The position numbers and the translations under genes are program-made. From a virus: a stretch of DNA of 49,775 nt. Positions 2,552 through 36,149 of the stretch are shown here, one piece after another. Where the stretch lies: IMG/VR virus record IMGVR_UViG_3300032006_000013, positions 1 through 49,775 of that record; one strand, 5' to 3'. Positions within the stretch are counted from its first letter, which is position 1; every line of letters begins with the position of its first letter. The notes under the pieces were generated by a model. That model ran no database searches. It worked only from the letters and a program-made list of their open reading frames with translations, and was not told the DNA's origin.

Positions 2552-3418
2552 ATGTCAAATAAAGATCAAGCTAAAATCACTGCCCAAATCATTGACGGTT
2601 TGGAAAATCTCAAAGGCGACTGGAAAAAGTCATGGGTCACAGCCGGTTCACCCGTGAACCCTGATGGCCGACTGTACCAAGGCATCAACATCCTAGTCTT
2701 GTTGTTTGCAACGGCACGTCACGGTTTCAGTTCCAACGAGTGGGGTACATACCAATCGTGGAAACGTCGCGGTGGCCAAGTGCAGGGTGGTCAGAAGTCG
2801 CCAGCTACAATCGTTGCTGTCGTACCGACGACCATCACTGAGGAAAACGATGACGGTGAGGAAGAAACTCGTTCGTTCAATCGAATGAAGACTTACTCTG
2901 TGTTCAACATCGACCAAGTCGACGGTGTAGACAAACGTCACGTCACGAAACTCAATGACAATGACCTCGTTGATGTTTGCGAAACTTACATTGCAAACAC
3001 TGGGGCAGTCATCAAGACAAGCACGTCGGCTCAACCAGCGTTCTATCCACTGCGTGACAAAATCACCATGCCAACGGTCAAGAACTTCCGTAACACACCA
3101 GCGTACTACTCGACGCTGTTACACGAGTTGACACACTGGACTGGCCACAAGTCACGGCTCAATCGAAACATGTCAACTGACATGAGGTCAGATGAGTATG
3201 CTTTCGAAGAGCTAATCGCAGAACTAGGTGCGGCTTTTCTATGTGCCGAGCTTGGCGTGGTCGAAGACGAGATGCGTCAAGATCACATCGAGTACATAGG
3301 GTCGTGGCTCAAACTGCTTCGCAAGGACAACAAGGCCATCTTCGAGGCGGCTCGACTTGCCAACAAGGCAAAGCAATATCTGGACGAACAACAACAAGAA
3401 GAAAGGAAAGTAGCATGA
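2552..3418 (+). CDS. ArdC-like antirestriction protein
   Basis: 288 aa, typical of ArdC-like phage and plasmid proteins. The N-terminal half (about 1-130) matches the ssDNA-binding ArdC N domain, with the LYQGINILVLLFA block and SNEWGTYQSWKRRGGQVQGGQKS. The C-terminal half is a zincin peptidase-like domain with LLHELTHWTGH: His191, Glu192 and His195 form HExxH, and an acidic helix after YAFEEL supplies the probable third ligand. ArdC proteins protect incoming DNA from host type I restriction; a peptidase activity is predicted from the motif. The gene sits in the early cluster just after hairpin copy 3 and overlaps the next gene by ATGA, implying coupled translation. Confidence 0.88.
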   Translation: MSNKDQAKITAQIIDGLENLKGDWKKSWVTAGSPVNPDGRLYQGINILVLLFATARHGFSSNEWGTYQSWKRRGGQVQGGQKSPATIVAVVPTTITEENDDGEEETRSFNRMKTYSVFNIDQVDGVDKRHVTKLNDNDLVDVCETYIANTGAVIKTSTSAQPAFYPLRDKITMPTVKNFRNTPAYYSTLLHELTHWTGHKSRLNRNMSTDMRSDEYAFEELIAELGAAFLCAELGVVEDEMRQDHIEYIGSWLKLLRKDNKAIFEAARLANKAKQYLDEQQQEERKVA

Positions 3419-5845: not shown

Positions 5846-5978
5846 GACATCCCTTTAGGGATAATTATGTCTGGCAAAATTTGTTCCTTTCATTGCCAGA
5901 AAAAAACAGCATCAGTTTTTTTTTCTTTTTGGTGCTGATGCTGTGGGGAAGGTGTCACACCACCTTCCCTTTTTTTTT
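5846..5978 (+). promoter_or_regulatory. structured leader with terminator before the CobS-like gene
   Basis: Four tandem stem-loops: the repeat hairpin (5846-5871, copy 4); CTGGCAA 5871-5877 with TTGCCAG 5893-5899; CAGCATCAG 5907-5915 with CTGATGCTG 5935-5943, whose loop holds a long T tract; and GGGAAGGTG 5946-5954 with CACCTTCCC 5961-5969 followed by nine T, a textbook intrinsic terminator. The next start codon is at 6000, leaving no room for a promoter downstream, so expression of the CobS/CobT operon probably depends on read-through. Confidence 0.75.
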
Positions 5979-5999
5979 ATCAACATAAGGAGACACCGC

Positions 6000-7904: not shown

Positions 7905-8158
7905 GCAAGTGGCAATACGTACATTTCCATCTGAAGGACGAACTGCCGCAGATAGGAAGCGGTCATCGCTGGGCGTGGGTGCGCGTCGAGTACAAGTGGA
8001 CCTACGTGTGGGACGAAACATCCAAGTGCCAGCGTAAGTTGCGGACAGCAAAGTTCATGGAATTGAAGACTGACTATCAGCCAAAGGAGAAAAAGAAATG
8101 TCGAAGTTCTCAAAGGATAAATTCGAAAGAGCCATCACTACAGGAGCAAAGGTCTTAG
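7901..8158 (+). CDS. hypothetical basic protein between CobS- and CobT-like genes (85 aa)
   Basis: Starts with ATGA overlapping the CobS-like stop. Residues 1-65 are aromatic and basic (SKWQYVHFHLKDEL, HRWAWVRVEYKWTYVW) and look like a real beta-rich protein. The last ~20 residues are encoded in a 61-nt overlap with the CobT-like gene and probably reflect an extended tail. Unrecognised; its position suggests an adaptor of the ATPase/vWA pair. Confidence 0.6.
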   Translation: MSKWQYVHFHLKDELPQIGSGHRWAWVRVEYKWTYVWDETSKCQRKLRTAKFMELKTDYQPKEKKKCRSSQRINSKEPSLQEQRS

Positions 8159-9921
8159 GCGGCGACCTCGACGTTGATGTCGTGTTCATAGGTAACAGGG
8201 CATTTACCAACGGCTCGACCATCACAATCCCCTCACTGCCAGAGGATGTAGAGTTGACGCTTGATCAAGTCAACATCGCTCGTGGTTACTATCATCACGA
8301 GGCGGCACACATTCGCTATACAGACTTCGACGTGTACTCAAAGACTGTCGGCCTTTTGCGTGAGAGCGGTGAGGAACAGAAAGCGGAGATGTGCAACGTC
8401 GTAGAAGACTGCTTCATCGAGCGAGAGTGGATGAAAGAGTTTGCTGGCAGTCATAAGATGCTGTCAATCATACACCGTACTATCGACCAGAACTCATACA
8501 GTGCGTTCCTCGACAAGGATCAAGACAAGTTCGAGTGGTGGGACATAGGTCTGTGTGCCATCCAGTGGCGTGACGGCCAGGAAAAAGGCTACGACCCCAT
8601 GTTCCGAGACAGGTGCCTCGACATGCTTACACCAGAACAACGACACAAGCTTGAGGGATGGTACGATCTTGTGCGCAGCGTGACATGTACTGCCGACTGC
8701 ATGAAGGTTGCACAACAAATCGTTGACGAGATGTTCGAGCATGATCACAGCGACACGATGTCTGAGCTTAAGTCGATTGAAGAGCGCATGGATAACTGGG
8801 ATAACCTCACACAAGAGGAGAAAGACAAGCTGGTAGAGGACAGCATGAAAGCTGGAGACAAGGCCGAAGCTGACCAGAAGACGGGCAACGGAAAGGTGTA
8901 TGTTCCAAGTCTCGACCTTGCCAAGGTGTTGCAGGGTGATGATGGCGGTAGCGGTAAGAAGCCACAACAAGAGATGACCTACCGTCCGTTCACGACACAG
9001 TACGACAAAATCTATGACCGCAACAACTGGGAAGAAGATCACTGGCATATTGCCGAGAAAGTATTCGGAGACAAGGCCGACACTGAATATCAAAAAGTTA
9101 TGAAAAGTCACAACTCTACCGTAAGCGTTATGCAAAGAAAGATACAACGAGCATTTGGAGCGCACGATCTAAGAGGCTGGGAAGGTGGCCATGAGACAGG
9201 CAGACTGGATGCACGTATGCTCACTCAAGCATATCAGGGCAACAGCAACGTACATCGCATTCGTACAGCGTCACAGGAAGTGTCGACGTCGGTACAGATA
9301 GTGATCGACGGCAGTAGTTCTATGAACTATGCAAATCTACAAATGTGTATACTTGCCAGCGCCGCTGTTTGCAAAACCTTGGAAGCCATTGGCGGTGAGT
9401 GCGAGATCATCTTTATGCCAGGGGGGGATGCTAACATATATCCTGAGCCATTGAAGATGGCAGTAAGGAAAGCAAGTGAAGATGGTAATACACGCTTCAC
9501 CAGAGGGACGCCTATCACCAACATATGTATAAAGGGTTTTGAGGATAGGCTGTCCCGTTGTCGCAGTGCGCTAGGCAATATTGTAAATGGCACTTGTGGA
9601 ACGACGCCTCTGCACGAGGTCATACATCAAAGCTACCGACGCCTGCTGCCACGTAACACCAACAGGAAAATTCAGTTGCTGGTTACTGATGGCGGTCCCG
9701 ACAACAACCTTCTATGCAGTGAAGCGATTAACCATGTGAGGTCAAAAGACATTGAGGTAGTAGGGATCGGGATCGGTGCCGATTACATCGGTGAATGGTG
9801 TGACCGCAACGTCGTGGTTCGTAACATCGACGACTTCGGTACTGCCGTCATGGATGACTTCGCAAGAATGTTATTAGGTGAAAGGTTCAATGCTAAGAAT
9901 GAAAGGAGAAAAATAGCATGA
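8098..9921 (+). CDS. cobT-like: CobT-like protein with HExxH motif and vWA domain
   Basis: 607 aa, ATG at 8098 after AAAGGAGAAAAAGAA. The N-terminal part has YYHHEAAH (HExxH at 67-71) followed about 30 residues later by VVEDCFIERE, a metallopeptidase-like arrangement seen in CobT-related vWA proteins. A charged acidic linker (about 215-300) leads to a C-terminal von Willebrand A domain with MIDAS residues Asp404, Ser406 and Ser408 in DGSSSM, a threonine in GTTP, and Asp531 in VTDGGPD. CobT partners CobS in cobaltochelatase, but general MoxR/vWA pairs act as metal-dependent chaperones or remodelling machines. Paired genes here imply a two-component machine; the target is unknown. Stop overlaps the next start (ATGA). 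Confidence 0.85.
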   Translation: MSKFSKDKFERAITTGAKVLGGDLDVDVVFIGNRAFTNGSTITIPSLPEDVELTLDQVNIARGYYHHEAAHIRYTDFDVYSKTVGLLRESGEEQKAEMCNVVEDCFIEREWMKEFAGSHKMLSIIHRTIDQNSYSAFLDKDQDKFEWWDIGLCAIQWRDGQEKGYDPMFRDRCLDMLTPEQRHKLEGWYDLVRSVTCTADCMKVAQQIVDEMFEHDHSDTMSELKSIEERMDNWDNLTQEEKDKLVEDSMKAGDKAEADQKTGNGKVYVPSLDLAKVLQGDDGGSGKKPQQEMTYRPFTTQYDKIYDRNNWEEDHWHIAEKVFGDKADTEYQKVMKSHNSTVSVMQRKIQRAFGAHDLRGWEGGHETGRLDARMLTQAYQGNSNVHRIRTASQEVSTSVQIVIDGSSSMNYANLQMCILASAAVCKTLEAIGGECEIIFMPGGDANIYPEPLKMAVRKASEDGNTRFTRGTPITNICIKGFEDRLSRCRSALGNIVNGTCGTTPLHEVIHQSYRRLLPRNTNRKIQLLVTDGGPDNNLLCSEAINHVRSKDIEVVGIGIGADYIGEWCDRNVVVRNIDDFGTAVMDDFARMLLGERFNAKNERRKIA

Positions 9922-11162: not shown

Positions 11163-12320
11163 ATGATTAATCTAAGGAAGAGAGGCGGTAAGCTCTACCT
11201 GTGGGGAGAGCATTTAGGCGTCAAGGTCCAGCGAACGACGAAGACTGACTGTCCTGTCACCGCAGAAAAAATTCGACAGGAAGAAGTACATAGGATTGAA
11301 CAGGCAAACCCGACGCTTGCGGAAGCCTATCATATTCAACAGGAGATAAAGGAGCGGAAGAAGAAACATGAGAGTTTTTCAGAACCCGTCGTGTATGAGG
11401 TCGGAGACTGGCGCAACTTTCAAAACTGGAAAATTCGAGACGCTGTGAAGGTATATGTTGACAGCCCAAATACAAGTGACAATTCGAGAAACGCGCTGCA
11501 GGATTGTATAAGCGGTGTTATGAACAACAGCTTACCGCGCAAGGTATCCGACATGGAGTCGCTGATCACATACTGGCAGACCAAAAACGATAAGCCGTTA
11601 AGCAATAATTCTATCAGAGTTTATTTGGGGAGAGTTCGTAGCTGTCTGAACTACGTCGAGAAGTGGAGCCGTGAGTATAAGCCAGAAGCTCACTATCGCG
11701 TGCCAATGGTAGACGTGCCGTTAAAAGAGCAGTCACGGGAAGACGTCTATCTGTCTCCCGACGAAGCGGAAAGGTTCTTGGACGTCGTCGAAGAAAGATG
11801 GCCAGCCAAGCATCCGATATACGTTCTGCTTGCTTATACAGGTGTTCGTCCTGTCGAGCTTGCTCGATTGCGGTGGGATGACGTGTATCTGAGGAACCGT
11901 GTCGAAGACAGTCTGATTGTTGTGAAGCACAAGAAGGGTAAGAAGGGTGGCGAGGTCTGGCGTAAACGTAACGTGCCAATGCACCCGAAGGTGTATACAC
12001 TGTTAAACTCTCTTACCGACAGGCAAGGCGCTGTAGTAAAACGATACGGGGGTCACTACTCGACGAGTACGCCAAAGGGAAGGGCTAAAAGTCCGGCTTT
12101 TTGTTTTTACCCGTTCAATAAAGCTAGGAAGTTAGCGCAACTGCCAGATCACATTACTTGCTATGCGCTGAGACATACCTTTGCCAGTTGGTTGAGGAAA
12201 AAGAACGTTCCGCTTGATGCGATAGCCGTGATCTTGGGGCATAGGGATATACAGACAACGATGAGATATGCTCATTTGAGCAATGACGATAAGGCGGCTT
12301 ACGTCCAGTCGTTAGTGTAA
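11163..12320 (+). CDS. int: tyrosine site-specific recombinase (integrase)
   Basis: 385 aa. N-terminal arm-binding and SAM-like region (about 1-190), then catalytic domain with Arg229 (TGVRPVEL), Arg337 (YALRHTF, where Tyr334 replaces the first His of HxxR, a known variation), His360 (LGH) and nucleophile Tyr369 (TTMRYAHL). Integrates phage DNA at an attB site, and with it the genome could be temperate. Leader AAAAGGAAACACCACAC. The following 267-bp gap is AT-rich with inverted and direct repeats and is the natural place to look for attP; the core site cannot be identified from this window. Confidence 0.93.
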   Translation: MINLRKRGGKLYLWGEHLGVKVQRTTKTDCPVTAEKIRQEEVHRIEQANPTLAEAYHIQQEIKERKKKHESFSEPVVYEVGDWRNFQNWKIRDAVKVYVDSPNTSDNSRNALQDCISGVMNNSLPRKVSDMESLITYWQTKNDKPLSNNSIRVYLGRVRSCLNYVEKWSREYKPEAHYRVPMVDVPLKEQSREDVYLSPDEAERFLDVVEERWPAKHPIYVLLAYTGVRPVELARLRWDDVYLRNRVEDSLIVVKHKKGKKGGEVWRKRNVPMHPKVYTLLNSLTDRQGAVVKRYGGHYSTSTPKGRAKSPAFCFYPFNKARKLAQLPDHITCYALRHTFASWLRKKNVPLDAIAVILGHRDIQTTMRYAHLSNDDKAAYVQSLV

Positions 12321-22920: not shown

Positions 22921-25900
22921 TTACAGTTTAGATTTTAGGCTATTGCCTACGGATGATTTTAGTCCTTTCTTCTTTTTGGACTTTGGTTCGCCAGCTAAAA
23001 AGTCGACAGCCCACTCTCGCCCACTACGGACGCCGCCAAGAACTGGCACACGCTGAGAAATTTCTCTAGCGGCTGGTCTGCTTATTGATCCTTCTGTCGG
23101 ATTAAGGCCTTGGAACATTGTCGCGCCAGCTTGAAGCGTTCCGAATGATGGGCCAAGAGCAAGCCCCATGATGCGGTTTACGCCATAAGAACCTTTTTCA
23201 TCTTGCATCCCAGCTTGATACAGCAAGTCCGCTACGAGTCCAAAGCCCCCCATATGGACGAGTGATTGTATGAACCAACCCAAAAATTTATCTCGATTTC
23301 CATGCACTCTGACGTCGTAGCCCATTTCTTCGACTAACTTGTTAAATGACCGTTCGCGTAGAGCCGCACTCCTTTCATCGTCGCCACCGCGCATTTGAAG
23401 AATGTCTTTGGCTGCCAACGCTAAAGAGCCAGAGGGTACACCAATCAAGATCATATTGAGTAAGGGTTTGATGTCGCCATCGTGTGCGGTTCGTCCACTG
23501 CCAGGAGTGTTACGCGGATCAAAGTATCTATATGCTTCTTTGAATGTGTGAGCCGCTAAACGCTGGAACATAAGAGGGTAACTCTTAAGTTGGAAAAGCA
23601 CCGCACCCCAAGGCGAATTATTGTCTTGGCTCCATAGAGGGAGGTCTGTTTTTGACGGCGTGAATATGCTTTCATTCGCAAAACGATGTAACGCTGTACG
23701 CAATCTTGCGTCGTCATACAGTAGAGCTACATCTTCAAATGACTTGTCATTGTGTGCGTATTCGCCTAACCCAAACTGCTCAAGCTTTCTTTTTGCTCGA
23801 CGGTACTTCGCTGATTGCGATACTTGACCTGGTTTGTAATGTTTCTGCGCTATTTTTTGTGTAGCTTTCAACATCTCGTAACCTGTGGCCGTTGCCACTT
23901 CGCGGTTGAGGTTTGTCCAAGGCGTCAACAAAGTGGCATTGAAAAATGCGTTGCTGAGTTTGCTGCCTGATCCACCGTAAAGCATCGCCATTCTCTGATG
24001 AGCAAGGTTTTCCATAGACGCACCAATGCTTCGAAGCGCGGCTCTGTATTCTGCACCGTCTTCTCCACTAGCGAAGTTACGCATTGCATTGTAACTGTCT
24101 CGAATACCCGCGCCTCTCAAGAAGGGGAGAGAGATGTCGGTGATACTGGTTAATGTTGTCCAGCCGAGCAGTGTTACCGAACTAAATGTTCGCAAAAACT
24201 TACTGGCGTTCCTGTGGCTATTGTAATAAACGCTGTCCGACGTAGGTCTTCCCATTAATGTAGACATGTATGTGTCGGCAAACTTGATCGGGTCTTGATC
24301 GCCAAAACTGCGTCGATCAAGTGAGCCAAATTTTTTGTTTTCAAATAATCCGTTTGCAATAGCGTCGACGCGCTTTTTGTAAGCGCGACTGCCATTTGGA
24401 CGCAGCCTGTTTAGGTACGCAGCCACAGAAACTGGACCTTGCCCTTTTGCAATGAGGGCTTCAGCGACTTCGATGGCTTGCACGGCTTCATCTGTACGCA
24501 TAGCACGCATCTCTGGGATACGGATTGTTCGCGGTTCGACGCCGTATCCAAATTCTTTTTGTGCCAATCGTGTACTGGTAACTATTTTGTCTGTCGATAA
24601 AAGTTTGATGGCGTCTCGCGCACCGTTCTGTCTGACCTGTAGATAATCGTAGAAGCCGTGATTATTTGTGCCGAACTTCTCTTGCATCTCTAGGCGTCGA
24701 GTGGTTCCCTCGAAGTATTTGGATGTGATACTTTGCAAGTCATCTGCCAGATAACCTTTCTTCTCCATAAAGTTTAGGATGTCTCCGTAGAGAAGTTTGC
24801 CGTTTGCATCTGTGTCGGTCAGACGTATCAAGCGCATGTATTCAGCATCCGACTTACCGCCCGATCTAGCATACTTGGAGCCTTGGTGAGGCAAGTAAAC
24901 ACCATCCTCATCAATAAGCGTATTTGCCATATGGTCAGCTATATCTTCTAGCGACCTTAAATCTCTGGTGTCTTCTGGATCACCGCGCAGTCGCTGCTCC
25001 CTTGTCAAGTAACCAGTGAGAGCCTTTTTAAACTCCTCAAAGTTGGCTTGAATTTTTTCAGTGTTCCAAATTTGAGGGAAATAATTATTAGGTATTTCAC
25101 CAATCCGTATCCCAGCTTCCCTCATTGACTGCAACTCCTGGTCAAACCGAGTTCGCAAGGCAGTAGCGAGATTGCGTTCTTCCTCATTGAGGTTTGCAAA
25201 GTTGTCTTGGCTTTGTCGACGTAGGGCTTTAACTACTTTTTTGTAGCTTTCTGGCTGTATGCCATCGCCCCAAAACTTTGTGTTTCGCCCCCATCTTTTG
25301 ACTGCCCCTGTTGCACTGTCTTCGCCAGCGGTCTTATACATTAGTTGAAAGATAGGCATGACCTTACGCGCAAACTCTGACATTTGACGTTCGTGGTATC
25401 CTGTACCGTCAATCGGTTTGGCCCAGTCACCAAGGTAGTGCATCCCGTGGTAGCGAAGTTTGCGTGCGTTGTCCTGTAAGAAGCGCAATGGATTGTACTT
25501 AGAAAGCGCACGCCAGTCAGCATCGTTGAATTGCTGTAGCTTCGCCATCTTTTTCATTACATCAATGATTTCGCTCTCTGCACCTAGATCATCAATGTCT
25601 GTGTAGAACTGCGCTTGATTGGCTGGCGTTGCATCTGGATCATCTATGATTGTGCTAACTGCTTTGCCAAGAGGCTTGGTTGTTCGCGGTGCCTTGAAGT
25701 GATAGTCGCTGTCTGGATTGAACTCTTCTGCGTCGGGAGACTTAACGTTGCTTCGATCAAACATCACAAGAGCTTCGTATTCTGTCATCTCTCTGTTGTC
25801 GCCAATCCTGTTGTATTCAATGAAACGCAGACTGTCGAAGCCAAGCTCTTTTACAATATTGTTAAAGTCTACCTTGCCGACGTTCACACTTTCTCCATCG

Positions 25901-28900
25901 GGTGTTAATGATATTGCAGCTAAAGTATGAAACCTTTCTGCATCAATACTTCCTGTTCTTTCTATTTCACCGTTCACAAAATCTCTAAGGCTCAAACCGC
26001 TCCTTTCTTGTAGGTCAAAGTTGTCGATGAAGTCTAAAACAGCATTCATGTCGGGATCATATTGACCTAATTTAATCCCAGCACGAAGATCAAATGGATT
26101 ACGCGCTCGTATCCGTACCTCTACAGTTCCAGGTTCTGGAACAACTCCTACTTCTGCTAACTCCCTTTCGGTTTCTGCGATCTGGTCTTGAACCTGTTCT
26201 AAAAGCGTCTCGTCTTTATCTGCAACAGCCCGAAACATTGCTATAGGACCGCTTTCTACTTCATTCGGACTAGCTTTCGCCTCAATCAGGTCGGTTTCCC
26301 TGCTCCTCAATTCTATTAAACGATCAATAGCAATCAAAGCATCTTGTTCTGCGACGAAATCAAGGTCAGCGTTTCGGACCATCGCTTGCATCGCTCCCGC
26401 AGTTGGACGGTTGGCATACATTGCATCGGTAACTTCGGGACTTTGCGAAATATAGATGCCTGGGCCGAGCCGAGATTGTGGTCCCGAATATTCCCAAATA
26501 AAATCTCGGTTATCGAACACCCTTCGGTTTGGTGTGCTGTGGAAATAAGGTACAGATTTGCCCATGCTTTCGCCTAGACCACCCTCAACAAAATTTAGTT
26601 CCTTCGCTAATCTGGCTTCGCTGACTGGCGTTTCAATGTTTTTAAACATGTCACCATAAAGTGTTAGGCGAGAGGCATAGTCTTTGATTGCCTTGTTGCC
26701 CATCATACCGTTAGAAAGATATGCTACTTCCTCTATACGTTCTTTAATGACGTCATTCAGAGGAGAGTAGCTGGCATTGTTGAACGGACGTTCGCCTTTG
26801 TTTCCTTCTATTACATCTACCAAGTAGGCTTGGAACCATTTTTGAGCCAAGCCACTTTCATTATCATAATCAAGGTCAGTTCCATTTTCTGCCTCAATAC
26901 GCTTTCTAACAGGATCATCAGGAAATCTATCGTATTCCGTAAGGACCGAATCAATGTCATCGCCATCAAGCGGACGTGCTTTGAAGTCAAGTTCGATTAG
27001 GCCTTCTACAGTCTCCCGTGGTGTAAGCATTCGTTGTTTACCGTTGCCTGTGAGGGATCGGCCCAATGCTCGAAGCTTTGTTCGTAGTGGGTTGAAGCCG
27101 CCAGAATTTATTTCTAGGTTTCTATCAGCTTCAACGATGTCATCAGCTATCAGCATCAGGCGGTGCATAAGTCCTCTGGCCACACGTTGTGTGTCGGGAT
27201 CGCGGTGTGTTATTCGACGCACAACTTCTCGTATTGGTTCTGGTGCGTGCGTCGGAACACCGTCGTTGTCCATTGCGCCCCGTGTTTGCAAATCTTCAGC
27301 TTCAAGAAATTCTGTTATGCGCGGTGCGTCGAACGAGATTATTGGTTTTGCTTTTGGATCGTTTCTGGCAAAAGCCTCGTAAGCGATTTGATTGGCCCGA
27401 ACTTTATCACCCTTGTCTAATGCCGCCGTTAAATTTTCAGACAGTTGAGCGTCACTCATTCGGATAACATCGACTGGTACTGGGACTTCTTTTACTTGCG
27501 CTCCAGCACGTATGCGTCGGATAAGTTCAGCACCTATCGCTTCTTCTCTAGCCTCATCAGGCTTTGTTCGTAATTCTTTATCCAACTCCCTGTTAGAAGC
27601 TGTCTTTGTTTTTTTGTCTTTAGGTGTATTTGTTGACGCTGGTTTGTTTTTGTTAGGTTCATTTGCTTTTGATTTCGCTCTTCTGCGACGACGTTTTTTT
27701 GGTTTGGATGCTGTTTCTTGTTTTTCCGCACGAGTTCTGGCACTGGCTTTTAAGTCTTCCCACGGCATCTTATATGTCAAGCGAGTGTCGGCCACGTATA
27801 GATAGTCAAGAGCGTTGTCGATGAGATTAAATGTTTCTGTGAAGAAATCGTCGTCGCTCATGTCAGCGAACGCTTGTATCTCCTCGTCTGTAACACCAGT
27901 CTTTTTTACGCCAACGGCAGCCCACATTTTGCGAGATTGTTTTTGTAAGATACCTGTAAGCTTCCTCTGCTCACGCACGTCTTCAGAAATAGCGAACAGC
28001 ATTGCCGCATTTTTACCAAACGGCTTTCCAGTATCAGGATTAATTTTCCCTACAAAACTTATCTCCCCAAGAAATTTAGCTATTGGCTCCATCACGCTGA
28101 TGAGTGAAGGTCGATTAACACCATCTGGTGTATTACCCATTTCGGCAAGTTCTTGTTCGAACTTGGCTTTATTCTCTCTGATGTTTTCCTGTAAGATTTT
28201 TTGCTGTATAGCCCATTCACTTTTTGGGACGTATTCTTTTTTGCTTGATGCGGTATCAGTCAATACCTTTTCACTTGGCCGTAAATGGCCGCCCTCAAGA
28301 ACTTCATAGGCATCGTTGATCGCTTCGTCGATAATCTCAAAAGCTTCGACTAAATCATTCGCGCTCTCTATGTTTGAAAGTCCACCTTTTGTGTGCTGTC
28401 GGCTTTCTATCTTGTCAAGGAAAGCAAGAACGCTGTCCTTGTCGAGGTGCGCGTCCATTGCCACGCCAAAAGTAGTTTCTGCATCATCGTCTGTCAGGGT
28501 AACTGCGCGTCGAAGAGCAGTTGTCATTTGTCGTATGCTGGTAAGAGAAGGACCATACGTCTGTATGCCGTCGGCGTCTTCTTGCAGGTCATTCAAACTG
28601 TCTTCTATATCTATGCGTTGCATAGTGAAGGCATCACGCATTTGAACTAAGCTTTCGCCAGCGCGTGTCTCTGGTTCTACCACACGAGACAGATAGCTTT
28701 GTGCATTGTCGTCATACAGTTTATCAAAGTAAGGTACTAGGGATTTATCGAGGCGTTGCTTCTTGCCAGGGATGATATACTCAAGAAAGTTCTGAAGCAG
28801 TTTACCCAGCTTCTGCATCATCGTTCCCTGGAATGGCAGCTTACCTTCTAAGTATGCTTGGAAGTTTGCCGCCATAAATTCTTCGGGGTTAAAGTTTGAT

Positions 28901-31900
28901 AGGGTTTTATCAGTTCCTATCATCTGACCTTCTTTATTAAATTGACGGCCTAAAGCATCTTGATCACGCAAAGCAAAGGGAGACATGCTTTGCAGTTTCT
29001 CTATGTCAAGTGTGCCGTCTGGTGCATAGTAGGCGCGTAGCTCTTTAAGCATTGCCGCCTTGTCGGATGGCGTTAGTACGTTTCTGTATCCCCAGTGGAA
29101 TAGCTCGTGTGCCAGTATAGAGTAATCTGGCAGGCCACCGTCGGTTTCACGAATGGTGATGGTTCCTGTTCTAGGAATAAAGGATGCAGATGTATCATCA
29201 GTGCCATCTCTTTTTACAATGTTCGGAGCCATGCCATTGTTGGCGTTTGTTATTCGACGCAGTACGTCTCTCATCAGGATCGTGCTGTCTGTTTCAGCGT
29301 CGCCAAAAATACTCTTTAGCTGTTGCCATGCCTCTCGACGTTTTTGTTGTGGGTACTTGTAGTCAGGCGTTTCGTTGTAAAGTGTTTCAAGCTGTTCGAT
29401 GCGAGAGTTGAAGTTGCTTAGATTGTCATCGAACTCTTGCTGTTCAATTTTGGTTATATTACGGATTTTTTCTGCAAGCTCATCATCACTAGCTTCTTGC
29501 AGTTCGGGTTTATTTTTCGCTGGTTGTGGCTGGGGCGTTTCGACTGCTTCTACTGGAGCTTCAGCATCAAACGGAACAAAGTCTTTTGTTGCTTCTGATT
29601 TTCTGAGATTTACGTTAGGAGAGAAGTGGCCAAGTTCCCAACCTTCTTGGTTCTTGCCCATGAGTTCTTCGAAGGTGCTTTGGTTTGCACCCATGCGACG
29701 GTTGTCAAATTTCTGATAGCCTTTACCACCGCCAATCTTTTTTCTAATTCCATAAACGCGGCCCTCTGGTATTGGGGGTAAACCCTCTCTCGACGCAGAG
29801 GAAACGGGAGCTTCAGCATCTGCTGCCGAAGGAGCGTCGGCTTTGCCGTCGATGCGTTGCTTGCGTCGAGTGATGATGCCTGCAACATCTTTAGGTTCTA
29901 TTTGTCCAGTCGTAACTAACTGGCCAAGGGACTGATAAAAACTGTCCCTGCTCTCGATATTGATAAGGTTCTCAACGGGGTCGTTTGCGTCTTTCTTTCT
30001 TTGGCGTTTGCCGACTTGTAATATTGAATACTTCTTTGAGGTTAAATCATATTCAACAATGTCGCCTCTTTTATAGTTCTTGCCGTCTGGTGTTCGTCCT
30101 CTCTGCGTAGCCACCTGTTCGACACGAGTTGACTTGTAGAGTTCAGTCTTGTCTTTGTCTTTACCTTTAAGTAAATCATTGGCGGCTTTGTTGCTTTCAG
30201 CGAGTGCTTTTAATTGTTGTGGCAGTTTGAGATCACGCCTAGTCACAGGACGCTGTTTTCTGCCAAGGCCAGCAATACGTTCTCCTTCTGGATTAGCGAA
30301 GAACGTGTCTTCACGAGATAGAAATGACTGCACGTTTCTTCGTGTTTCATCTGTTTCAATAAGACGTTCTAATTCTAGTTCTGCAAGGGTATCGATCCTG
30401 TGTCGAAAAAACCCTTTGCTTTGGTCATTGAGTTGCGTGTCATTTTGCATACGCTCAACCATGCGTGTGAGGTCGCCCAAGAATTGCTGTTTGGTTTCTT
30501 CTGATAAACCAGACATGTCCATGTCGCTGATAACGCCTTTGACAATTTGGTTTTTAATTCGGGCCGCTTCTCTAGCAGGGTTTAGAGTTCCATCTCGCGG
30601 AGCTTGAAACTCTTCCGATGCACCTAGACCATACTTGTCTACAAGCTGTCTAACTCTTTGTGGGTCTATTACGACGAACTCAAGGTCAGCAAACAAGTCT
30701 ACTAATTGTTCGTCATCTAGCTCGGATATAGTTTTTGCAGTGATACCATTTTCTTCAAGGATACTTAGGGCTGTATTAGCGTTCATCTCCACAGATGCGC
30801 GTTGCTGTGCTGGGGTAGTGGTGTCTACTTCTGGTGCTTCCGCTTCTACAGGAGCTTCCTCTGTGGCGACTTCTTCTGCCTCTGCTTTTGTTGCCTCTAC
30901 CTCGCTTTCGACTTCCTCTGATCTAATCTCTGCTTCGGCTTTATCCGTAACAGCGTCGTCAAGTTTTTCACCATCTTTGTTTCGGATAGCATCAAGAAGG
31001 GTTCTGTTTTCGATGATTAGTTTAGAACGCTGGTCCTGTAGCTGTGTGACTTGTTTTGGATCAGTTGCTTTGGCTATCTTTTCATCTAGTGCGGCTATCT
31101 GCTCTTGCTGAGAGATGATCGAACGATAGATAGCTGCCTTGCGTACACGTATGCGTGCGTCAAAGTAAGCTTCTTTCTTTGTCTTGTCTTTTAAAATTTG
31201 TTTTTTGTCTAGCCTGTCGTCGATGCGACCAAGATCATTTTCTGCGATTATTGCTTGTGCTTGCGCTTCTTCCTCTTGTGCCGCTTGCTCTAAAGCTACA
31301 CTGTCGAGGTCTTCAGCTTCTACAGGTGCTTCAGCTTCTGGAGCAGAAGGGGCTTCGACGTCTGCGTCGGTTGCTGTGTCTACAGGTTTTGGCTGTAGCT
31401 GTGCGTCGGTTAGATCATTAGCTTCCGCTAGGTTTTTTAGTTGGTCATCGATGTCGCTTACATCAGCATTGGGATCGTCTGTCAGCCTAGCGGCTTTTTC
31501 CGCATTAAGTTTGGCTACGGCGTCAGTTACTTGACGTCCTTTCCTGGCACCTACCGCACCACCAATACCGCCGATTACACCGCCAAGCGCACCGCCAGCC
31601 ACACCACCTAAAAGTGCTTCTTGAACAACTCTGTCATAATCAAACTCGCCCTCTTGCGCTCCAGACAATATATCTCCTGTTTGTCTAGGAAAACTTTGTA
31701 CAGCCGATACAGTAGCCTCGACAGGAGCCGCGCTTACAGAACCAGCCCCAACCCCTTTGGCAACTGACGTTGAAAGTTTCTGGCCAGCTTGTGCGGCGGC
31801 TTTACCAATCTTTAAACCAGAGAGGCCAGGGATAACGTTTTCTACAGAAAGAACTAGGGCAGGGATTGTATCTTCAAGCCCTTCTAGTATTCCTCGCCCC

Positions 31901-32256
31901 CCTTCTTGCCAGAACGCAGGGTATTGATCGAAAACTTTTTGGATGTTTCCCATCTTCTTTCTTATTTCTGGTGTGGCTTTTTTGATTGCCTTGTAGCCAG
32001 CATCGCCCCCTAGTTCGGCGGCAAGGTTTAGATCGCGCCAGTTGCGTTCCCAGAAAAACTCTTGGAGCATATCCTCGTCATTGTCGAAGTATTGTCCTTG
32101 AGACGCCATGACATCACGTACATCCTGTAGAAATTGTGGATGCGAGAGGACAGTAGATGGATTGAAGTTTGTTAGATAATCAGCAGCTTCTTGCTGCGCT
32201 TTATATTGTTCTTTTGCTTGATTTGAAAGCTTTTGGTAATAGGGACTTAATGCCAC
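22921..32256 (-). CDS. giant polyvalent ejection protein with metallopeptidase and ART-like domains
   Basis: 3111 aa, GTG start at 32256 (CTGGAGAACCGAC). N-terminal ~240 residues are Gly/Ala-rich and possibly membrane-active; then charged linkers with repeated EAPVEA. At 1050-1054 HELFH lies in SILAHELFHWG, with FNPEEFMAANF as probable third-ligand region, giving a zinc metallopeptidase. About 1895-2185 is an ADP-ribosyltransferase-like domain: His1906 (YFHST), Tyr1935 (GPGIYIS), Glu2161 (EALVMFD), IRARNPFDLRA and SNVKSPDAE. The C-terminal ~450 residues resemble large polyvalent-protein regions. Probably packaged and ejected into the host. Other regions are unassigned; a transglycosylase was not recognised. 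Confidence 0.85.
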   Translation of the reverse strand: MALSPYYQKLSNQAKEQYKAQQEAADYLTNFNPSTVLSHPQFLQDVRDVMASQGQYFDNDEDMLQEFFWERNWRDLNLAAELGGDAGYKAIKKATPEIRKKMGNIQKVFDQYPAFWQEGGRGILEGLEDTIPALVLSVENVIPGLSGLKIGKAAAQAGQKLSTSVAKGVGAGSVSAAPVEATVSAVQSFPRQTGDILSGAQEGEFDYDRVVQEALLGGVAGGALGGVIGGIGGAVGARKGRQVTDAVAKLNAEKAARLTDDPNADVSDIDDQLKNLAEANDLTDAQLQPKPVDTATDADVEAPSAPEAEAPVEAEDLDSVALEQAAQEEEAQAQAIIAENDLGRIDDRLDKKQILKDKTKKEAYFDARIRVRKAAIYRSIISQQEQIAALDEKIAKATDPKQVTQLQDQRSKLIIENRTLLDAIRNKDGEKLDDAVTDKAEAEIRSEEVESEVEATKAEAEEVATEEAPVEAEAPEVDTTTPAQQRASVEMNANTALSILEENGITAKTISELDDEQLVDLFADLEFVVIDPQRVRQLVDKYGLGASEEFQAPRDGTLNPAREAARIKNQIVKGVISDMDMSGLSEETKQQFLGDLTRMVERMQNDTQLNDQSKGFFRHRIDTLAELELERLIETDETRRNVQSFLSREDTFFANPEGERIAGLGRKQRPVTRRDLKLPQQLKALAESNKAANDLLKGKDKDKTELYKSTRVEQVATQRGRTPDGKNYKRGDIVEYDLTSKKYSILQVGKRQRKKDANDPVENLINIESRDSFYQSLGQLVTTGQIEPKDVAGIITRRKQRIDGKADAPSAADAEAPVSSASREGLPPIPEGRVYGIRKKIGGGKGYQKFDNRRMGANQSTFEELMGKNQEGWELGHFSPNVNLRKSEATKDFVPFDAEAPVEAVETPQPQPAKNKPELQEASDDELAEKIRNITKIEQQEFDDNLSNFNSRIEQLETLYNETPDYKYPQQKRREAWQQLKSIFGDAETDSTILMRDVLRRITNANNGMAPNIVKRDGTDDTSASFIPRTGTITIRETDGGLPDYSILAHELFHWGYRNVLTPSDKAAMLKELRAYYAPDGTLDIEKLQSMSPFALRDQDALGRQFNKEGQMIGTDKTLSNFNPEEFMAANFQAYLEGKLPFQGTMMQKLGKLLQNFLEYIIPGKKQRLDKSLVPYFDKLYDDNAQSYLSRVVEPETRAGESLVQMRDAFTMQRIDIEDSLNDLQEDADGIQTYGPSLTSIRQMTTALRRAVTLTDDDAETTFGVAMDAHLDKDSVLAFLDKIESRQHTKGGLSNIESANDLVEAFEIIDEAINDAYEVLEGGHLRPSEKVLTDTASSKKEYVPKSEWAIQQKILQENIRENKAKFEQELAEMGNTPDGVNRPSLISVMEPIAKFLGEISFVGKINPDTGKPFGKNAAMLFAISEDVREQRKLTGILQKQSRKMWAAVGVKKTGVTDEEIQAFADMSDDDFFTETFNLIDNALDYLYVADTRLTYKMPWEDLKASARTRAEKQETASKPKKRRRRRAKSKANEPNKNKPASTNTPKDKKTKTASNRELDKELRTKPDEAREEAIGAELIRRIRAGAQVKEVPVPVDVIRMSDAQLSENLTAALDKGDKVRANQIAYEAFARNDPKAKPIISFDAPRITEFLEAEDLQTRGAMDNDGVPTHAPEPIREVVRRITHRDPDTQRVARGLMHRLMLIADDIVEADRNLEINSGGFNPLRTKLRALGRSLTGNGKQRMLTPRETVEGLIELDFKARPLDGDDIDSVLTEYDRFPDDPVRKRIEAENGTDLDYDNESGLAQKWFQAYLVDVIEGNKGERPFNNASYSPLNDVIKERIEEVAYLSNGMMGNKAIKDYASRLTLYGDMFKNIETPVSEARLAKELNFVEGGLGESMGKSVPYFHSTPNRRVFDNRDFIWEYSGPQSRLGPGIYISQSPEVTDAMYANRPTAGAMQAMVRNADLDFVAEQDALIAIDRLIELRSRETDLIEAKASPNEVESGPIAMFRAVADKDETLLEQVQDQIAETERELAEVGVVPEPGTVEVRIRARNPFDLRAGIKLGQYDPDMNAVLDFIDNFDLQERSGLSLRDFVNGEIERTGSIDAERFHTLAAISLTPDGESVNVGKVDFNNIVKELGFDSLRFIEYNRIGDNREMTEYEALVMFDRSNVKSPDAEEFNPDSDYHFKAPRTTKPLGKAVSTIIDDPDATPANQAQFYTDIDDLGAESEIIDVMKKMAKLQQFNDADWRALSKYNPLRFLQDNARKLRYHGMHYLGDWAKPIDGTGYHERQMSEFARKVMPIFQLMYKTAGEDSATGAVKRWGRNTKFWGDGIQPESYKKVVKALRRQSQDNFANLNEEERNLATALRTRFDQELQSMREAGIRIGEIPNNYFPQIWNTEKIQANFEEFKKALTGYLTREQRLRGDPEDTRDLRSLEDIADHMANTLIDEDGVYLPHQGSKYARSGGKSDAEYMRLIRLTDTDANGKLLYGDILNFMEKKGYLADDLQSITSKYFEGTTRRLEMQEKFGTNNHGFYDYLQVRQNGARDAIKLLSTDKIVTSTRLAQKEFGYGVEPRTIRIPEMRAMRTDEAVQAIEVAEALIAKGQGPVSVAAYLNRLRPNGSRAYKKRVDAIANGLFENKKFGSLDRRSFGDQDPIKFADTYMSTLMGRPTSDSVYYNSHRNASKFLRTFSSVTLLGWTTLTSITDISLPFLRGAGIRDSYNAMRNFASGEDGAEYRAALRSIGASMENLAHQRMAMLYGGSGSKLSNAFFNATLLTPWTNLNREVATATGYEMLKATQKIAQKHYKPGQVSQSAKYRRAKRKLEQFGLGEYAHNDKSFEDVALLYDDARLRTALHRFANESIFTPSKTDLPLWSQDNNSPWGAVLFQLKSYPLMFQRLAAHTFKEAYRYFDPRNTPGSGRTAHDGDIKPLLNMILIGVPSGSLALAAKDILQMRGGDDERSAALRERSFNKLVEEMGYDVRVHGNRDKFLGWFIQSLVHMGGFGLVADLLYQAGMQDEKGSYGVNRIMGLALGPSFGTLQAGATMFQGLNPTEGSISRPAAREISQRVPVLGGVRSGREWAVDFLAGEPKSKKKKGLKSSVGNSLKSKL

Positions 32257-32261
32257 GTCGG

Positions 32262-32299
32262 TTCTCCAGTTTCACAACGATTAAATCGTTGTCGCTGGA
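32262..32299 (-). promoter_or_regulatory. stem-loop overlapping the RBS of the giant gene
   Basis: ACAACGAT/ATCGTTGT (8 bp, 3-nt loop) at 32274-32292 inside an outer 5-bp TCCAG/CTGGA pair. The outer arm overlaps the Shine-Dalgarno GGAG of the 3111-aa gene, so translation may be restrained. Confidence 0.6.
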
Positions 32300-32321: not shown

Positions 32322-34811
32322 TTATTGGCGGTTTACATTTGTTCCTGGTGCTAAACCAGGTGTTGATCCGCTTCGATAAAAGCTTCTGGCACCAGGGTTT
32401 TTACTGTTGGTGGGGAAAGCGTCTTGTGGCAGCACAAAGAAGTCGTTGAAGATTATGTCTTGATCTTTTTTAAGTTTAATTCGTAATGCAACTCGGTTTG
32501 GTTCTTTATACATACGGTTTAGCTCGTCTTCCATTGCGGTCAACGTATCAAACGTACCAGCCTCTACATCTCCAAATATAACAGTCCCAGCCCCGATTGA
32601 TGACTTCATATCTCTAACACGTTTGAGCAAATCAGCTATATATTGATTTCTTTCTTGTATAAATTCCGTAGGGTCATTTGTTCCCAACATTCGGCCAGCT
32701 TCTTTGCTATAATATGGGGCAGAAGAAATTACCTCTAATGATGGTCTAAGGTCAGCGAAATCTGTTTCTAAAGATTTCATCTTCGCGGCAATTTCTTTTT
32801 GTGTTGCAATCGGGGCTGTTCTGTCAGCGATTTTCTTCGCAATGAAACCTGCCCGTGAACTTTGAAGTTTTTTATTGTCTGGTCGATTTAATTCATTATA
32901 AGCTTTTTCTAAAAGAAGAGGCTGATCACGCAAGAACGTGTTTTTGTCACGTCCAGCCATTTGCCAAGCAAACTCATATATCAAGGTGAGATCAGAGCCG
33001 TGCATTATATCTTTTCCTGAGAGGAAACCTTCGACGCCAGCCGACGCCGTGAGCGCGTCTGTGTCGTCTTCATCAACGTCAAACTTATTTGCGGCCCATC
33101 CTTGTATTTGTTTTGTACTGGCCTTGGCAAGATTTTCGACCAATGTTGTGTACTGTTGATCAGCGGATTTCTGTATTTGTATCTTTAAACCTTTTTGGAG
33201 TGTCACTACTCCAGCGTCTAAGTTTATTTGTAATCTGCTTACAAGTTGGTTAAAGATTTTTTGTCTTGTTGATCCTTGAATGCCATTGGGGATTGCCCGT
33301 TCTAATGTGTCAAGAGCATAGGCGTCTTTCCCTTCGTTTCCGAGAGCTACTATTCTTTTAAATAGGTCTGACTTTTCTATGTTATTAACAGTTTCTTGTA
33401 TGCGTGCTGGCTCTTTAACTTTTGCCTCATCCATACCTTTTATTCGCCAAGCGAGGGCATCAAACGAATCACCAACTTTGAATAAATTATAATATTGTTG
33501 GATTTCCTTGATGGCGTTTTCACGTATGTTGGCATCAGTGCTTGACAGTCGGTTCATAAAACCTTGATCCGACGTAAATTTTTCAGTGATCTTTGCTATT
33601 TGCACTCTGTCGTTTTCGGCTTGCTGACCCTTTGCTTCGTTGATGACTTTGTTTATCAGCCCAATATTATTCATTGGGATGCCTAGTCTATTTGCAACGT
33701 CTTGAGGTGAGTAGTTTTTTGTTGGTCCTATTATTGCTGCAAGTTCTTTTACCAATTTCGCTTCCGAACTTTTGATATTAACAGGCGACATCAACTTGTT
33801 ATAGATATGTTGAAGCGCGGCTTCCTTTGCATGTGGGTTCATCATTACATCTAGGCCTTTTTCTATCTCTGCTCTGAGGCCTAGTTCACTAAGGTTTTTA
33901 CCTTGTTTGACAATATACGTTCTGAGATTTGCAAGAAATTCTGGATTGTTCGTTCGTAAATCGTTGACAGCTTTCGTAGCTATGATGGGGGTACGCGCTG
34001 TCTGCTCGTTTTTAAGCGAGGCATTGAGCAAAGCAAATTCGTTTGGTTGGAGTGTTATTCCATTTAGGGTCGCTTGTTGTGAAACAAAATCCATCGCTTT
34101 TTTTATAGACTGTTCATCGCCCATGTTAATTAGTTGTTGGACTGTTTCATTTTTCTGCATGTTTTTAGCAAATGTTTCTACTTTCTTGTCACGCTCTGTG
34201 CGGTCACGCCGTTTTCTTTTTGCCACTGCCAACTGGAGAATTTCCGCATTGGCTTGCAGGCCTAAACTGGCGGCGGCTTCTGCCGCATCACCAGCGTCGA
34301 TGCCTTGCATCATCTCTGAAATTCTTGTAGCCATTTCACCTTTTAAGCTTATAACCTTTGCGTCGAACGTCGGCCTGTAGTTCCGCATGATTGCTTGAGC
34401 CGTTTGCGCTCCTGGCGAACTTGGGTCAGGAAACATAGACACTACATCTTTTTCCAAACTTTCGAATGTGCTGTTTGCAGTTATCTTGTTGTCTATCATT
34501 TTCGAAACGCTGTTCAACGCATCTATATGCGAAGTCATCCTTTCGTTTTCGAGTTTCCACTCGTTGTATTTTCTGTCCTTCTCTCTTCGGTCTGCATAAG
34601 AACGTAGAGCCGCTGTCGATGGCAGTTGCTGTTTTAGGTAACTGCTTCCACCAGAGAGTGTGTCTATCACATTTTGATGATCCCCGATTGGAGCATCTGG
34701 GAATAGTTGCCGCCACTCCCTGTAGAACTGTAGGTTCTTCATGCGTTTAGTCTGGTATGCCTCATCAGACTTTTGCATACCCTCTGTAAATTTATGGAAA
34801 CCAAAAATCAT
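32322..34811 (-). CDS. internal virion (ejection) protein, 829 aa
   Basis: Large helical, charged protein with no recognised enzyme motif (N-terminus MIFGFHKFTEGMQKSDEAYQTKRMKNLQFYREW). Composition and position between a smaller internal virion protein and the giant protein match podovirus gp14-gp15-gp16 style ejection sets. Probably carried in the capsid and ejected. ATG at 34811. Confidence 0.7.
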   Translation of the reverse strand: MIFGFHKFTEGMQKSDEAYQTKRMKNLQFYREWRQLFPDAPIGDHQNVIDTLSGGSSYLKQQLPSTAALRSYADRREKDRKYNEWKLENERMTSHIDALNSVSKMIDNKITANSTFESLEKDVVSMFPDPSSPGAQTAQAIMRNYRPTFDAKVISLKGEMATRISEMMQGIDAGDAAEAAASLGLQANAEILQLAVAKRKRRDRTERDKKVETFAKNMQKNETVQQLINMGDEQSIKKAMDFVSQQATLNGITLQPNEFALLNASLKNEQTARTPIIATKAVNDLRTNNPEFLANLRTYIVKQGKNLSELGLRAEIEKGLDVMMNPHAKEAALQHIYNKLMSPVNIKSSEAKLVKELAAIIGPTKNYSPQDVANRLGIPMNNIGLINKVINEAKGQQAENDRVQIAKITEKFTSDQGFMNRLSSTDANIRENAIKEIQQYYNLFKVGDSFDALAWRIKGMDEAKVKEPARIQETVNNIEKSDLFKRIVALGNEGKDAYALDTLERAIPNGIQGSTRQKIFNQLVSRLQINLDAGVVTLQKGLKIQIQKSADQQYTTLVENLAKASTKQIQGWAANKFDVDEDDTDALTASAGVEGFLSGKDIMHGSDLTLIYEFAWQMAGRDKNTFLRDQPLLLEKAYNELNRPDNKKLQSSRAGFIAKKIADRTAPIATQKEIAAKMKSLETDFADLRPSLEVISSAPYYSKEAGRMLGTNDPTEFIQERNQYIADLLKRVRDMKSSIGAGTVIFGDVEAGTFDTLTAMEDELNRMYKEPNRVALRIKLKKDQDIIFNDFFVLPQDAFPTNSKNPGARSFYRSGSTPGLAPGTNVNRQ

Positions 34812-34820
34812 TTGAGTACC

Positions 34821-36149
34821 TTACAAGACGCGGTTCGGGTCAATATAAAATCCTCCCTGATCCCATGTGCCAGCACTGGTGCTTCCACCAAACATGGGAT
34901 CAGGGCCAAGAGAACTGTAATCGATTGGATTTGATGATGGGGTCGGGGCAAATAAATCACCAAGCTTCATATCACCAAGACCTGTTTCTTTGAAAAGTTT
35001 GTCAGCCGATTGCCCAGCCGCGCCAAAAGCACCGCCAGCCTGTTCTGCTAATGTTTTCATCAGTGCTTGCGAGGTTTGTGCGGCGGCTGGGGCAGACTTT
35101 AATACACCTGCTGGACCCTGCACACGATAGCTGAATGGGGCTGTCGCAAGTGCTTGACCAGTGTCAAGCGTCGTTGTTGCAAGTGCCTGCTCCTGTCCAA
35201 GCGTTCGAAGTGCGGCTTGATAATCGGCCAAGTCAGTGTTCTGGTTGAGTGCGTCAATGTTTTGCAACATGCCCATTGCGCCTGCCATGTTGGTTCTTTC
35301 ACCTGCCTGAGCTTGTTGTGATAAGTTTTGTCCAGTGACTGCCGACTGCATAGCCTGTCTGAAGGCAAGGTCTTGCATTGATCGGTCAAAGTTGAGGCCA
35401 GCTATGTCTGCCCCCTGTGCGGCTATGTTACCGCGTTGTAAGCCAGTATCCAAGCCTTGCAGTCCCTGCATCTGACGCATTGCCATGTTGATCGCGTTGA
35501 GTGTGTTTCTTGCTTCGGCTTCGTCCATCGCGTCTGCCATCTGACGAGCCGCTACTGTGCGCTGTCCTGTAACCCCACCGCCTAGCTTGCGCTGGCTGTC
35601 GGTTAGGATTTTACTCATTGCCTGATCAAGGTTGCGCTTCGACATTGTGTCGAGGTTCATTTTATACATGTTGGCAAGTTCAGCGACCGCAGTATCGTAC
35701 TTATTTGGTGAAAAGGCTGTATTGATTGCGGCTCTGCTTCCAACATTTCCAGCCGTTGTCGGAAACAAAGTATCAGCAAGCGTCATTTGAGAAAGAAGCT
35801 CTGCATCCTGTCGGCGTTTTTGTACTGCGCTTTCCTGTAGGATGTCGCGCCGTGTGTCGATCTCGCCTTGATCTCGTTCAGCGGAAAGCAGATTTGCAAG
35901 ATCGTCAATATATGCTGGATCGTACTGACCGCGCCCCCCGTAGGCAGTAAGCAGATCAGCAATGACGTCTTGAAGTGCGTCAGCACCTTCGTCGTAAATT
36001 CCTTCTTGACGATCCATGCTCTCGATCTGACGGTTCTGAAGCTGTTCAGCCATTCGCAGCTGTTTTTTTGCACGGCTGTTCGCTTGAAAACCTGATATTA
36101 GGTTGGCTCCGAGGCCAGCTACCCCAAGGAGAGTTGAAAAAGCTACCAT
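34821..36149 (-). CDS. internal virion protein, 442 aa
   Basis: N-terminal hydrophobic helix (FSTLLGVAGLGANLISGF) followed by long Gln/Ala/Asp-rich helices and a flexible, Gly/Pro-rich C-terminus. Typical gp14-like internal virion protein, possibly forming part of the ejection channel. RBS GGAG-CTAACAG precedes ATG at 36149. No catalytic motif seen. Confidence 0.7.
   Translation of the reverse strand: MVAFSTLLGVAGLGANLISGFQANSRAKKQLRMAEQLQNRQIESMDRQEGIYDEGADALQDVIADLLTAYGGRGQYDPAYIDDLANLLSAERDQGEIDTRRDILQESAVQKRRQDAELLSQMTLADTLFPTTAGNVGSRAAINTAFSPNKYDTAVAELANMYKMNLDTMSKRNLDQAMSKILTDSQRKLGGGVTGQRTVAARQMADAMDEAEARNTLNAINMAMRQMQGLQGLDTGLQRGNIAAQGADIAGLNFDRSMQDLAFRQAMQSAVTGQNLSQQAQAGERTNMAGAMGMLQNIDALNQNTDLADYQAALRTLGQEQALATTTLDTGQALATAPFSYRVQGPAGVLKSAPAAAQTSQALMKTLAEQAGGAFGAAGQSADKLFKETGLGDMKLGDLFAPTPSSNPIDYSSLGPDPMFGGSTSAGTWDQGGFYIDPNRVL

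What the first reader, a model, noticed from the sequence alone, without database searches (positions are those of the whole stretch)
22921..32256. 3111-aa ejected protein combining zinc metallopeptidase and ADP-ribosyltransferase-like domains
One virion protein carries HELFHWG (His1050, Glu1051, His1054) and, 850 residues later, an ART-like H-Y-E triad (His1906, Tyr1935, Glu2161) with RNPFDLRA and SNVKSPDAE. This suggests enzymes injected with DNA to modify host proteins at entry. Motifs are seen; activity and targets are inferred.
Basis: partly seen in the sequence, partly recalled or inferred. Interest (0 to 1): 0.7.

Follow-up and report, generated by a model that had tools for sequence, protein, structure and literature searches.

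The report
Giant phage ejection protein, two enzymes
A marine short-tailed phage encodes a 3,111-residue protein, probably shot into the bacterium with its DNA, that carries a zinc-protease domain and an ADP-ribose-transferring domain; it is a well-supported new member of a known class (polyvalent proteins), not a new kind of system.

Summary
The minus-strand ORF (22921-32256, GTG start with a good ribosome site) has HELFHW at 1050-1055, H1906, Y1935 and E2161, exactly as numbered. At least 36 homologues, mostly single ORFs of 3.0-3.5 kaa, exist in IMG/VR; the named relative is Roseobacter phage CRP-810, where the gene is split in three. The ART H and Y are conserved in 41/43. AlphaFold models match gluzincins (Z 9.1) and ARTs (cyanophage A4 pre-ejectosome protein, Z 10.9; ART-PolyVal proteins). 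34 of 43 homologous ART domains match Pfam ART-PolyVal. The C-terminal 860 residues belong to podovirus virion proteins related to T7 gp16. So: a T7-gp16-like ejection protein with a zincin and an ART inserted, a 'polyvalent protein' as described by Iyer et al. 2017 (PMC5512222). E2161 is at the right place but not strictly conserved (E/D 26/43, T 11/43). A second zincin, with intact motif in CRP-810, is decayed here. Most likely working: the zincin processes the protein, the ART modifies host proteins. Presence in the virion, activity and targets are inferred.

The parts
22921..32256 (-). 3111-aa giant internal virion/ejection protein gene (GTG start, GGAG at 32264-32267)
   Evidence: homologues
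31507..32256 (-). residues 1-250: conserved N-terminal domain, homologous to CRP-810 gp36 ('internal virion protein D')
31552..31614 (-). residues 215-235 LLGGVAGGALGGVIGGIGGAV: most hydrophobic, glycine-zipper-like segment, candidate membrane segment
   Evidence: hydropathy 1.64, highest of the protein; glycines conserved
28672..29334 (-). residues 975-1195: gluzincin-type metallopeptidase domain
29092..29109 (-). HELFHW (1050-1055), zinc-binding and catalytic motif; H, E, H, W invariant 37/37
28879..28881 (-). E1126 of PEEFMA, predicted third zinc ligand, invariant 37/37
26797..27045 (-). residues 1738-1820: remnant of a second zincin (HExxH and [EQ]EWF intact in CRP-810 and nine other homologues, lost here)
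25681..26580 (-). residues 1893-2192: ADP-ribosyltransferase domain, ART-PolyVal type, with a helical insert at about 1947-2039
26539..26541 (-). H1906, ART strand-1 histidine (41/43)
26452..26454 (-). Y1935, ART strand-2 tyrosine (41/43)
25774..25776 (-). E2161, predicted third ART residue (E 19, D 7, T 11, other 6 of 43)
22972..25551 (-). residues 2236-3095: best-conserved, T7-gp16-like C-terminal virion domain
32322..34811 (-). 829-aa late gene immediately upstream, in the position of T7 gene 15 (position and size only)
34821..36149 (-). 442-aa late gene in the position of T7 gene 14 (position and size only)

Best explanation
It is the largest internal (ejection) protein of a CRP-810-type marine short-tailed phage: a T7-gp16-like scaffold (N-terminal membrane-insertion part, conserved C-terminal core) with a gluzincin metallopeptidase and an ART-PolyVal ADP-ribosyltransferase between them. 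It is probably packed in the capsid above the portal and threaded into the cell before or with the DNA, helping to build the transient channel. The zincin most likely cuts the polypeptide, during maturation or after entry, freeing the ART part; the ART then transfers ADP-ribose from NAD+ to host proteins early in infection, as T4 Alt does. Shown here: sequence, domain homology, conservation and predicted folds. Inferred: virion location, ejection, catalysis, self-cleavage and targets.
For: Motifs exact. Homologous family of single-ORF 3.0-3.5 kaa proteins. Zincin catalytic and ligand residues 37/37, and in the zincin 14 synonymous against 1 non-synonymous change versus the closest relative. 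Zincin model matches LF catalytic domain Z 9.1, PPEPs and ArdC. ART: 34/43 members match Pfam ART-PolyVal, best E 8e-12; model pLDDT 88; match to 9k3a_B residues 1418-1600, Z 10.9 over 173 residues, and PARP14 core Z 6.3; several BFVD hits named ART-PolyVal, best named E 3.6e-6. 9k3a_B is the 1717-aa cyanophage A-4L protein of a pre-ejectosome structure; it carries YHGT, GTYF and GDTTLVI, the same H-Y-acidic pattern. C-terminus matches phrog_684, phrog_6958 and phrog_342; T7 gp16 itself is phrog_342. Gene order with two large genes upstream matches T7 14-15-16. Published model: Iyer et al. 2017.
Against: No virion proteomics. The window protein itself hits no Pfam or PHROG model as a full chain. 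Direct comparison of the C-terminal profile with T7 gp16 is weak (score 6.7 against a best of 5.6 in 200 shuffles; hhalign probability 10%), so that link rests on phrog_342. Foldseek PDB E-values are weak for both models (best 0.008 and 0.05). The third ART residue is not acidic in 17/43. Self-cleavage has no direct evidence; N4 vRNAP, with a similar zincin, is packaged uncut (PMC5512222).
Confidence: 0.78

Rival explanations
1. The zincin is itself a host-directed effector (cleaving a host defence or cell-envelope protein) rather than a self-processing enzyme.
For: Closest solved folds are substrate-specific proteases such as LF and PPEPs, and the antirestriction protein ArdC; Iyer et al. allow this role.
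Against: The site is invariant in every homologue (37/37) while the ART site is lost in one clade; a constant core function such as processing fits this better than an arms-race role. A shared fold shows no substrate.
Confidence: 0.3
2. The ART is vestigial or structural in part of the family, including perhaps here, and acts only as packing or spacer mass of the ejection protein.
For: Third residue varies (E, D, T, Q, K, M, R); H and Y lost in L036/L029/L076; ART segment shows 1 synonymous and 5 non-synonymous differences to its closest relative, too few to read.
Against: H and Y kept in 41/43 and H, Y and E kept in the window and its closest relatives; the YHG-type histidine motif intact in 62 of 63 further loci found through the zincin; H-Y-T/I/L mono-ARTs are known among PARPs (own knowledge).
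Confidence: 0.15
3. The protein is not ejected but acts inside the producing cell late in infection, as an assembly or lysis factor.
For: No proteomics; late-gene position alone does not show packaging.
Against: C-terminus belongs to PHROG virion structural families incl. that of T7 gp16; nearest solved ART-like domain is in a pre-ejectosome.
Confidence: 0.1
4. The ART modifies DNA, RNA or a small molecule rather than protein.
For: ART superfamily members are known to do each (own knowledge; PMC5512222 lists nucleic acids and nucleotides as substrates).
Against: The HYD2/ART-PolyVal clade is placed with protein-modifying ARTs by Iyer et al.; prediction only.
Confidence: 0.2

Closest known systems
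Polyvalent proteins of phages and conjugative elements (Iyer et al. 2017, PMC5512222), prototype for the ART: Roseovarius Plymouth podovirus 1 vRNAP CBX87992.1
   Same: Zincin MPTase and ART-PolyVal domains joined in one giant phage protein of over 3 kaa, in a late-gene position
   Different: No RNA polymerase module; scaffold is T7-gp16-like instead of N4 vRNAP; ART carries a helical insert and is too diverged for Pfam to score
Roseobacter phage CRP-810 gp36-gp35-gp34 (PMC11288001)
   Same: Same domains in the same order, C-term 37% identity, MCP 61% identity
   Different: Gene split into three overlapping ORFs; a second HExxH (HEIGH 1457) intact; third ART position K; annotated hypothetical apart from gp36
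Anabaena cyanophage A-4L ORF27, PDB 9k3a chain B (pre-ejectosome)
   Same: Ejection-complex protein with an ART-like domain, H-Y-acidic pattern
   Different: No HExxH; no sequence-level match beyond short motifs
T7 internal virion protein gp16 (phrog_342)
   Same: Third and largest of three tandem late genes; C-terminal domain related through phrog_342
   Different: T7 gp16 has an N-terminal transglycosylase and neither zincin nor ART
T4 Alt
   Same: ART injected with the DNA, the functional model (PMC5512222)
   Different: Different ART family, not part of a polyvalent protein (PMC5512222)

Membership tests
Polyvalent proteins | Two or more domains of unrelated biochemical activity in one phage or plasmid polypeptide | tested here: met
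   zincin and ART domains
Polyvalent proteins | Delivered into the host with the DNA | not testable with these tools
   inferred from homology to virion proteins
ART-PolyVal (PF18760) | Match to the Pfam model above its cut-off (31.2 bits) | tested here: inconclusive
   window domain: no hit; homologous domain in 34 of 43 relatives matches at E up to 0.01, best 8e-12; CRP-810 24 bits, under the cut-off
ART-PolyVal (PF18760) | H in strand 1, Y in strand 2, acidic residue in strand 5 | tested here: met
   H1906, Y1935, E2161 are residues 14, 43 and 269 of the modelled segment and lie in strands 12-16, 42-45 and 264-273; third position acidic in 26/43 homologues
ART fold | Predicted structure resembles ART domains | tested here: met
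   9k3a_B Z 10.9; PARP14 core Z 6.3, a middling value; ART-PolyVal proteins
Zincin MPTase (gluzincin) | HExxH plus a downstream glutamate ligand | tested here: met
   H1050, E1051, H1054, E1126 invariant 37/37
Zincin MPTase (gluzincin) | Zincin fold | tested here: met
   pLDDT 76 model; LF catalytic domain Z 9.1 over 148 residues, PPEPs, ArdC, IrrE
T7 gp16-like internal virion proteins (phrog_342) | Sequence match to the family | tested here: inconclusive
   10 of 27 C-terminal homologues match, best E 1e-20, the window's own does not; direct T7 gp16 comparison weak
T7 gp16-like internal virion proteins (phrog_342) | N-terminal lytic transglycosylase | tested here: not met
   no such Pfam or PHROG hit in the family, while T7 gp16 itself gives transglycosylase hits
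N4-like vRNAP | RNA polymerase module | tested here: not met
   no RNAP domain hit in 15 full-length members, though RPP1 vRNAP is detected by the same library

The most novel reading that the evidence does not exclude
T7-gp16-type ejection proteins, not only N4-type virion RNA polymerases, are a general vehicle for delivering enzymes: in a large uncharacterised marine phage family the obligatory zincin works as a release protease that frees an ART from the DNA-conducting channel after it has crossed the membrane, a built-in cargo-release step.
Probability: 0.3. Interest if true: 0.6.

Novelty: new member of a known kind. Interest (0 to 1): 0.36.

Why it matters
It assigns a domain architecture to the largest gene of the widespread CRP-810-type marine phages, where gp35 and gp34 are annotated as hypothetical, and gives residue-exact mutants to test (E1051, E1126, H1906, Y1935, E2161). 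The contrast between an invariant protease site and a variable, sometimes lost, transferase site separates a core from an accessory function. With the cyanophage A4 pre-ejectosome structure, which contains an ART-like domain, it makes early host ADP-ribosylation by podoviruses testable outside T4.

Tried and rejected
Full-protein searches of Pfam and PHROGs gave nothing; domain alignments were needed. Phage near-DNA search: no match. PDB sequence searches with the zincin, ART, N- and C-terminal profiles gave only chance or coiled-coil hits. hhalign of the ART profile against A-4L and RPP1 single sequences was not significant, so those links rest on fold comparison and on Pfam respectively. In the ART VIA list most rows match only the helical insert 55-147 and were disregarded. 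dN/dS in the ART segment is uninformative: one synonymous change; divergence is uneven along the gene. HExxH intact in 80/80 zincin-found loci is partly ascertainment, since search patterns overlap the motif; the 37/37 figure comes from loci found through the C-terminus. Considered and rejected: chance HExxH (0.02 expected), assembly fusion (separate contigs agree), N4 vRNAP (no RNAP module).

Full report
What is there. The minus-strand ORF 22921-32256 encodes 3111 residues from a GTG with GGAG seven bases upstream. The window is a linear IMG/VR record of 49,775 bases. Another IMG/VR contig has an identical gene and a MAG contig a 92-98% identical one.

Relatives. In the GenBank phage collection the only clear relative is Roseobacter phage CRP-810: gp34 matches residues 2249-3090 at 37% and gp35 carries the zincin and the ART; the major capsid protein is 61% identical. 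Weak matches reach Vibrio 'particle protein', Pelagibacter HTVC103P and KPP25 structural proteins. In IMG/VR the C-terminal alignment finds 165 relatives, 80 fetched; 36 ORFs are of 3000 residues or more, 26 of them non-redundant. Among the relatives are L008 and L009, the window's own clade; L008 is 61% identical over the C-terminal tree columns.

Zincin. In 37 sequences H1050, E1051, H1054, W1055, G1081, P1124, E1126 and A1129 are invariant. HExxH plus a glutamate in a following helix is the pattern of the MPTases described for polyvalent proteins (PMC5512222). The model (pLDDT 76) has its best matches in zincins: minigluzincins, LF, IrrE, and by VIA-align the LF catalytic domain at Z 9.1, rmsd 3.6, 148 residues, then PPEPs and ArdC. 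Fold similarity to a toxin says nothing about target.

ART. H1906 and Y1935 are kept in 41/43, D2141 in 41/43, the third position is E 19, D 7, T 11, Q 2, K 2, M 1, R 1. Pfam ART-PolyVal matches 34 of 43 members and CRP-810 at E 7e-5, below the curated cut-off. The model has pLDDT 88 with a helical insert. The best solved match is 9k3a chain B, residues 1418-1600, Z 10.9, rmsd 3.7 over 173 residues, confirmed by sequence to be the 1717-aa A-4L protein; that stretch reads SLYHGT, GSGTYF, GVDALTDGDTTLVINP, and by eye its D in GDTTLVI stands at the place of E2161. PARP14's catalytic core follows at Z 6.3 over 95 residues. In BFVD, sixteen matches reach E 0.001 and several are named ART-PolyVal.

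A second, decayed zincin. CRP-810 gp35 has another HExxH (HEIGH, 1457). Ten of 29 homologues have it, all ten with EEWF or QEWF some way downstream; the window reads ETVEG and QKWF. On the C-terminal tree it occurs on both sides of the midpoint root, so repeated loss is the simpler reading, though the root is not established and two carriers sit on long branches. The two ART-lost rows form one clade.

Scaffold. The C-terminal 860 residues are the best-conserved part. PHROG scans hit phrog_684 and phrog_6958 (virion structural) in 26 of 27 and phrog_342 in 10 of 27; T7 gp16 is phrog_342. Direct comparison with T7 gp16 is weak. The N-terminal 250 residues match the CRP-810 gene annotated internal virion protein D and hold a glycine-rich hydrophobic segment. 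Two large late genes precede it, as 14 and 15 precede 16 in T7, by position only.

Mechanism. Iyer et al. propose that MPTases process polyvalent proteins and that their ARTs, like T4 Alt, modify host proteins at entry. The pattern found here, protease site invariant and transferase site variable and sometimes lost, fits a core processing role and an accessory effector role. This is inference.

Verdict. New here are the family, the third zinc ligand, the decayed second zincin, the gp16-like scaffold and the link to a solved pre-ejectosome.

Noticed in passing
L003:12889-22529 (CRP-810 gp36/gp35/gp34) and L061:2613-12469: The gene is one ORF in most relatives but three overlapping ORFs in CRP-810 and in L061: real split, frameshifting or sequencing error.
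   Followed up: partly
L087 and L088 (PBNR01000023.1, 60,643 bp): A MAG contig filed under Gammaproteobacteria begins and ends inside this gene, so it is probably a circularly closed phage genome of about 60 kb; the 49.8-kb window is then incomplete.
   Followed up: partly
window 2552-3418 (+): ArdC-like antirestriction protein with MPTase-PolyVal domain (Pfam E 7.5e-44): a second polyvalent-type zincin in the same genome.
   Followed up: partly
window 5943-9921 (+): CobS-like AAA ATPase and CobT-like VWA protein pair, as in CRP-810; role in phages unknown.
   Followed up: no
window 11163-12320 (+): Phage integrase (Pfam E 6e-23), so the phage may be temperate.
   Followed up: no
window 22921-32256 against L087/L088: Synonymous divergence varies from 0.005 to 0.27 along the gene, a sign of recombination between close relatives.
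   Followed up: partly
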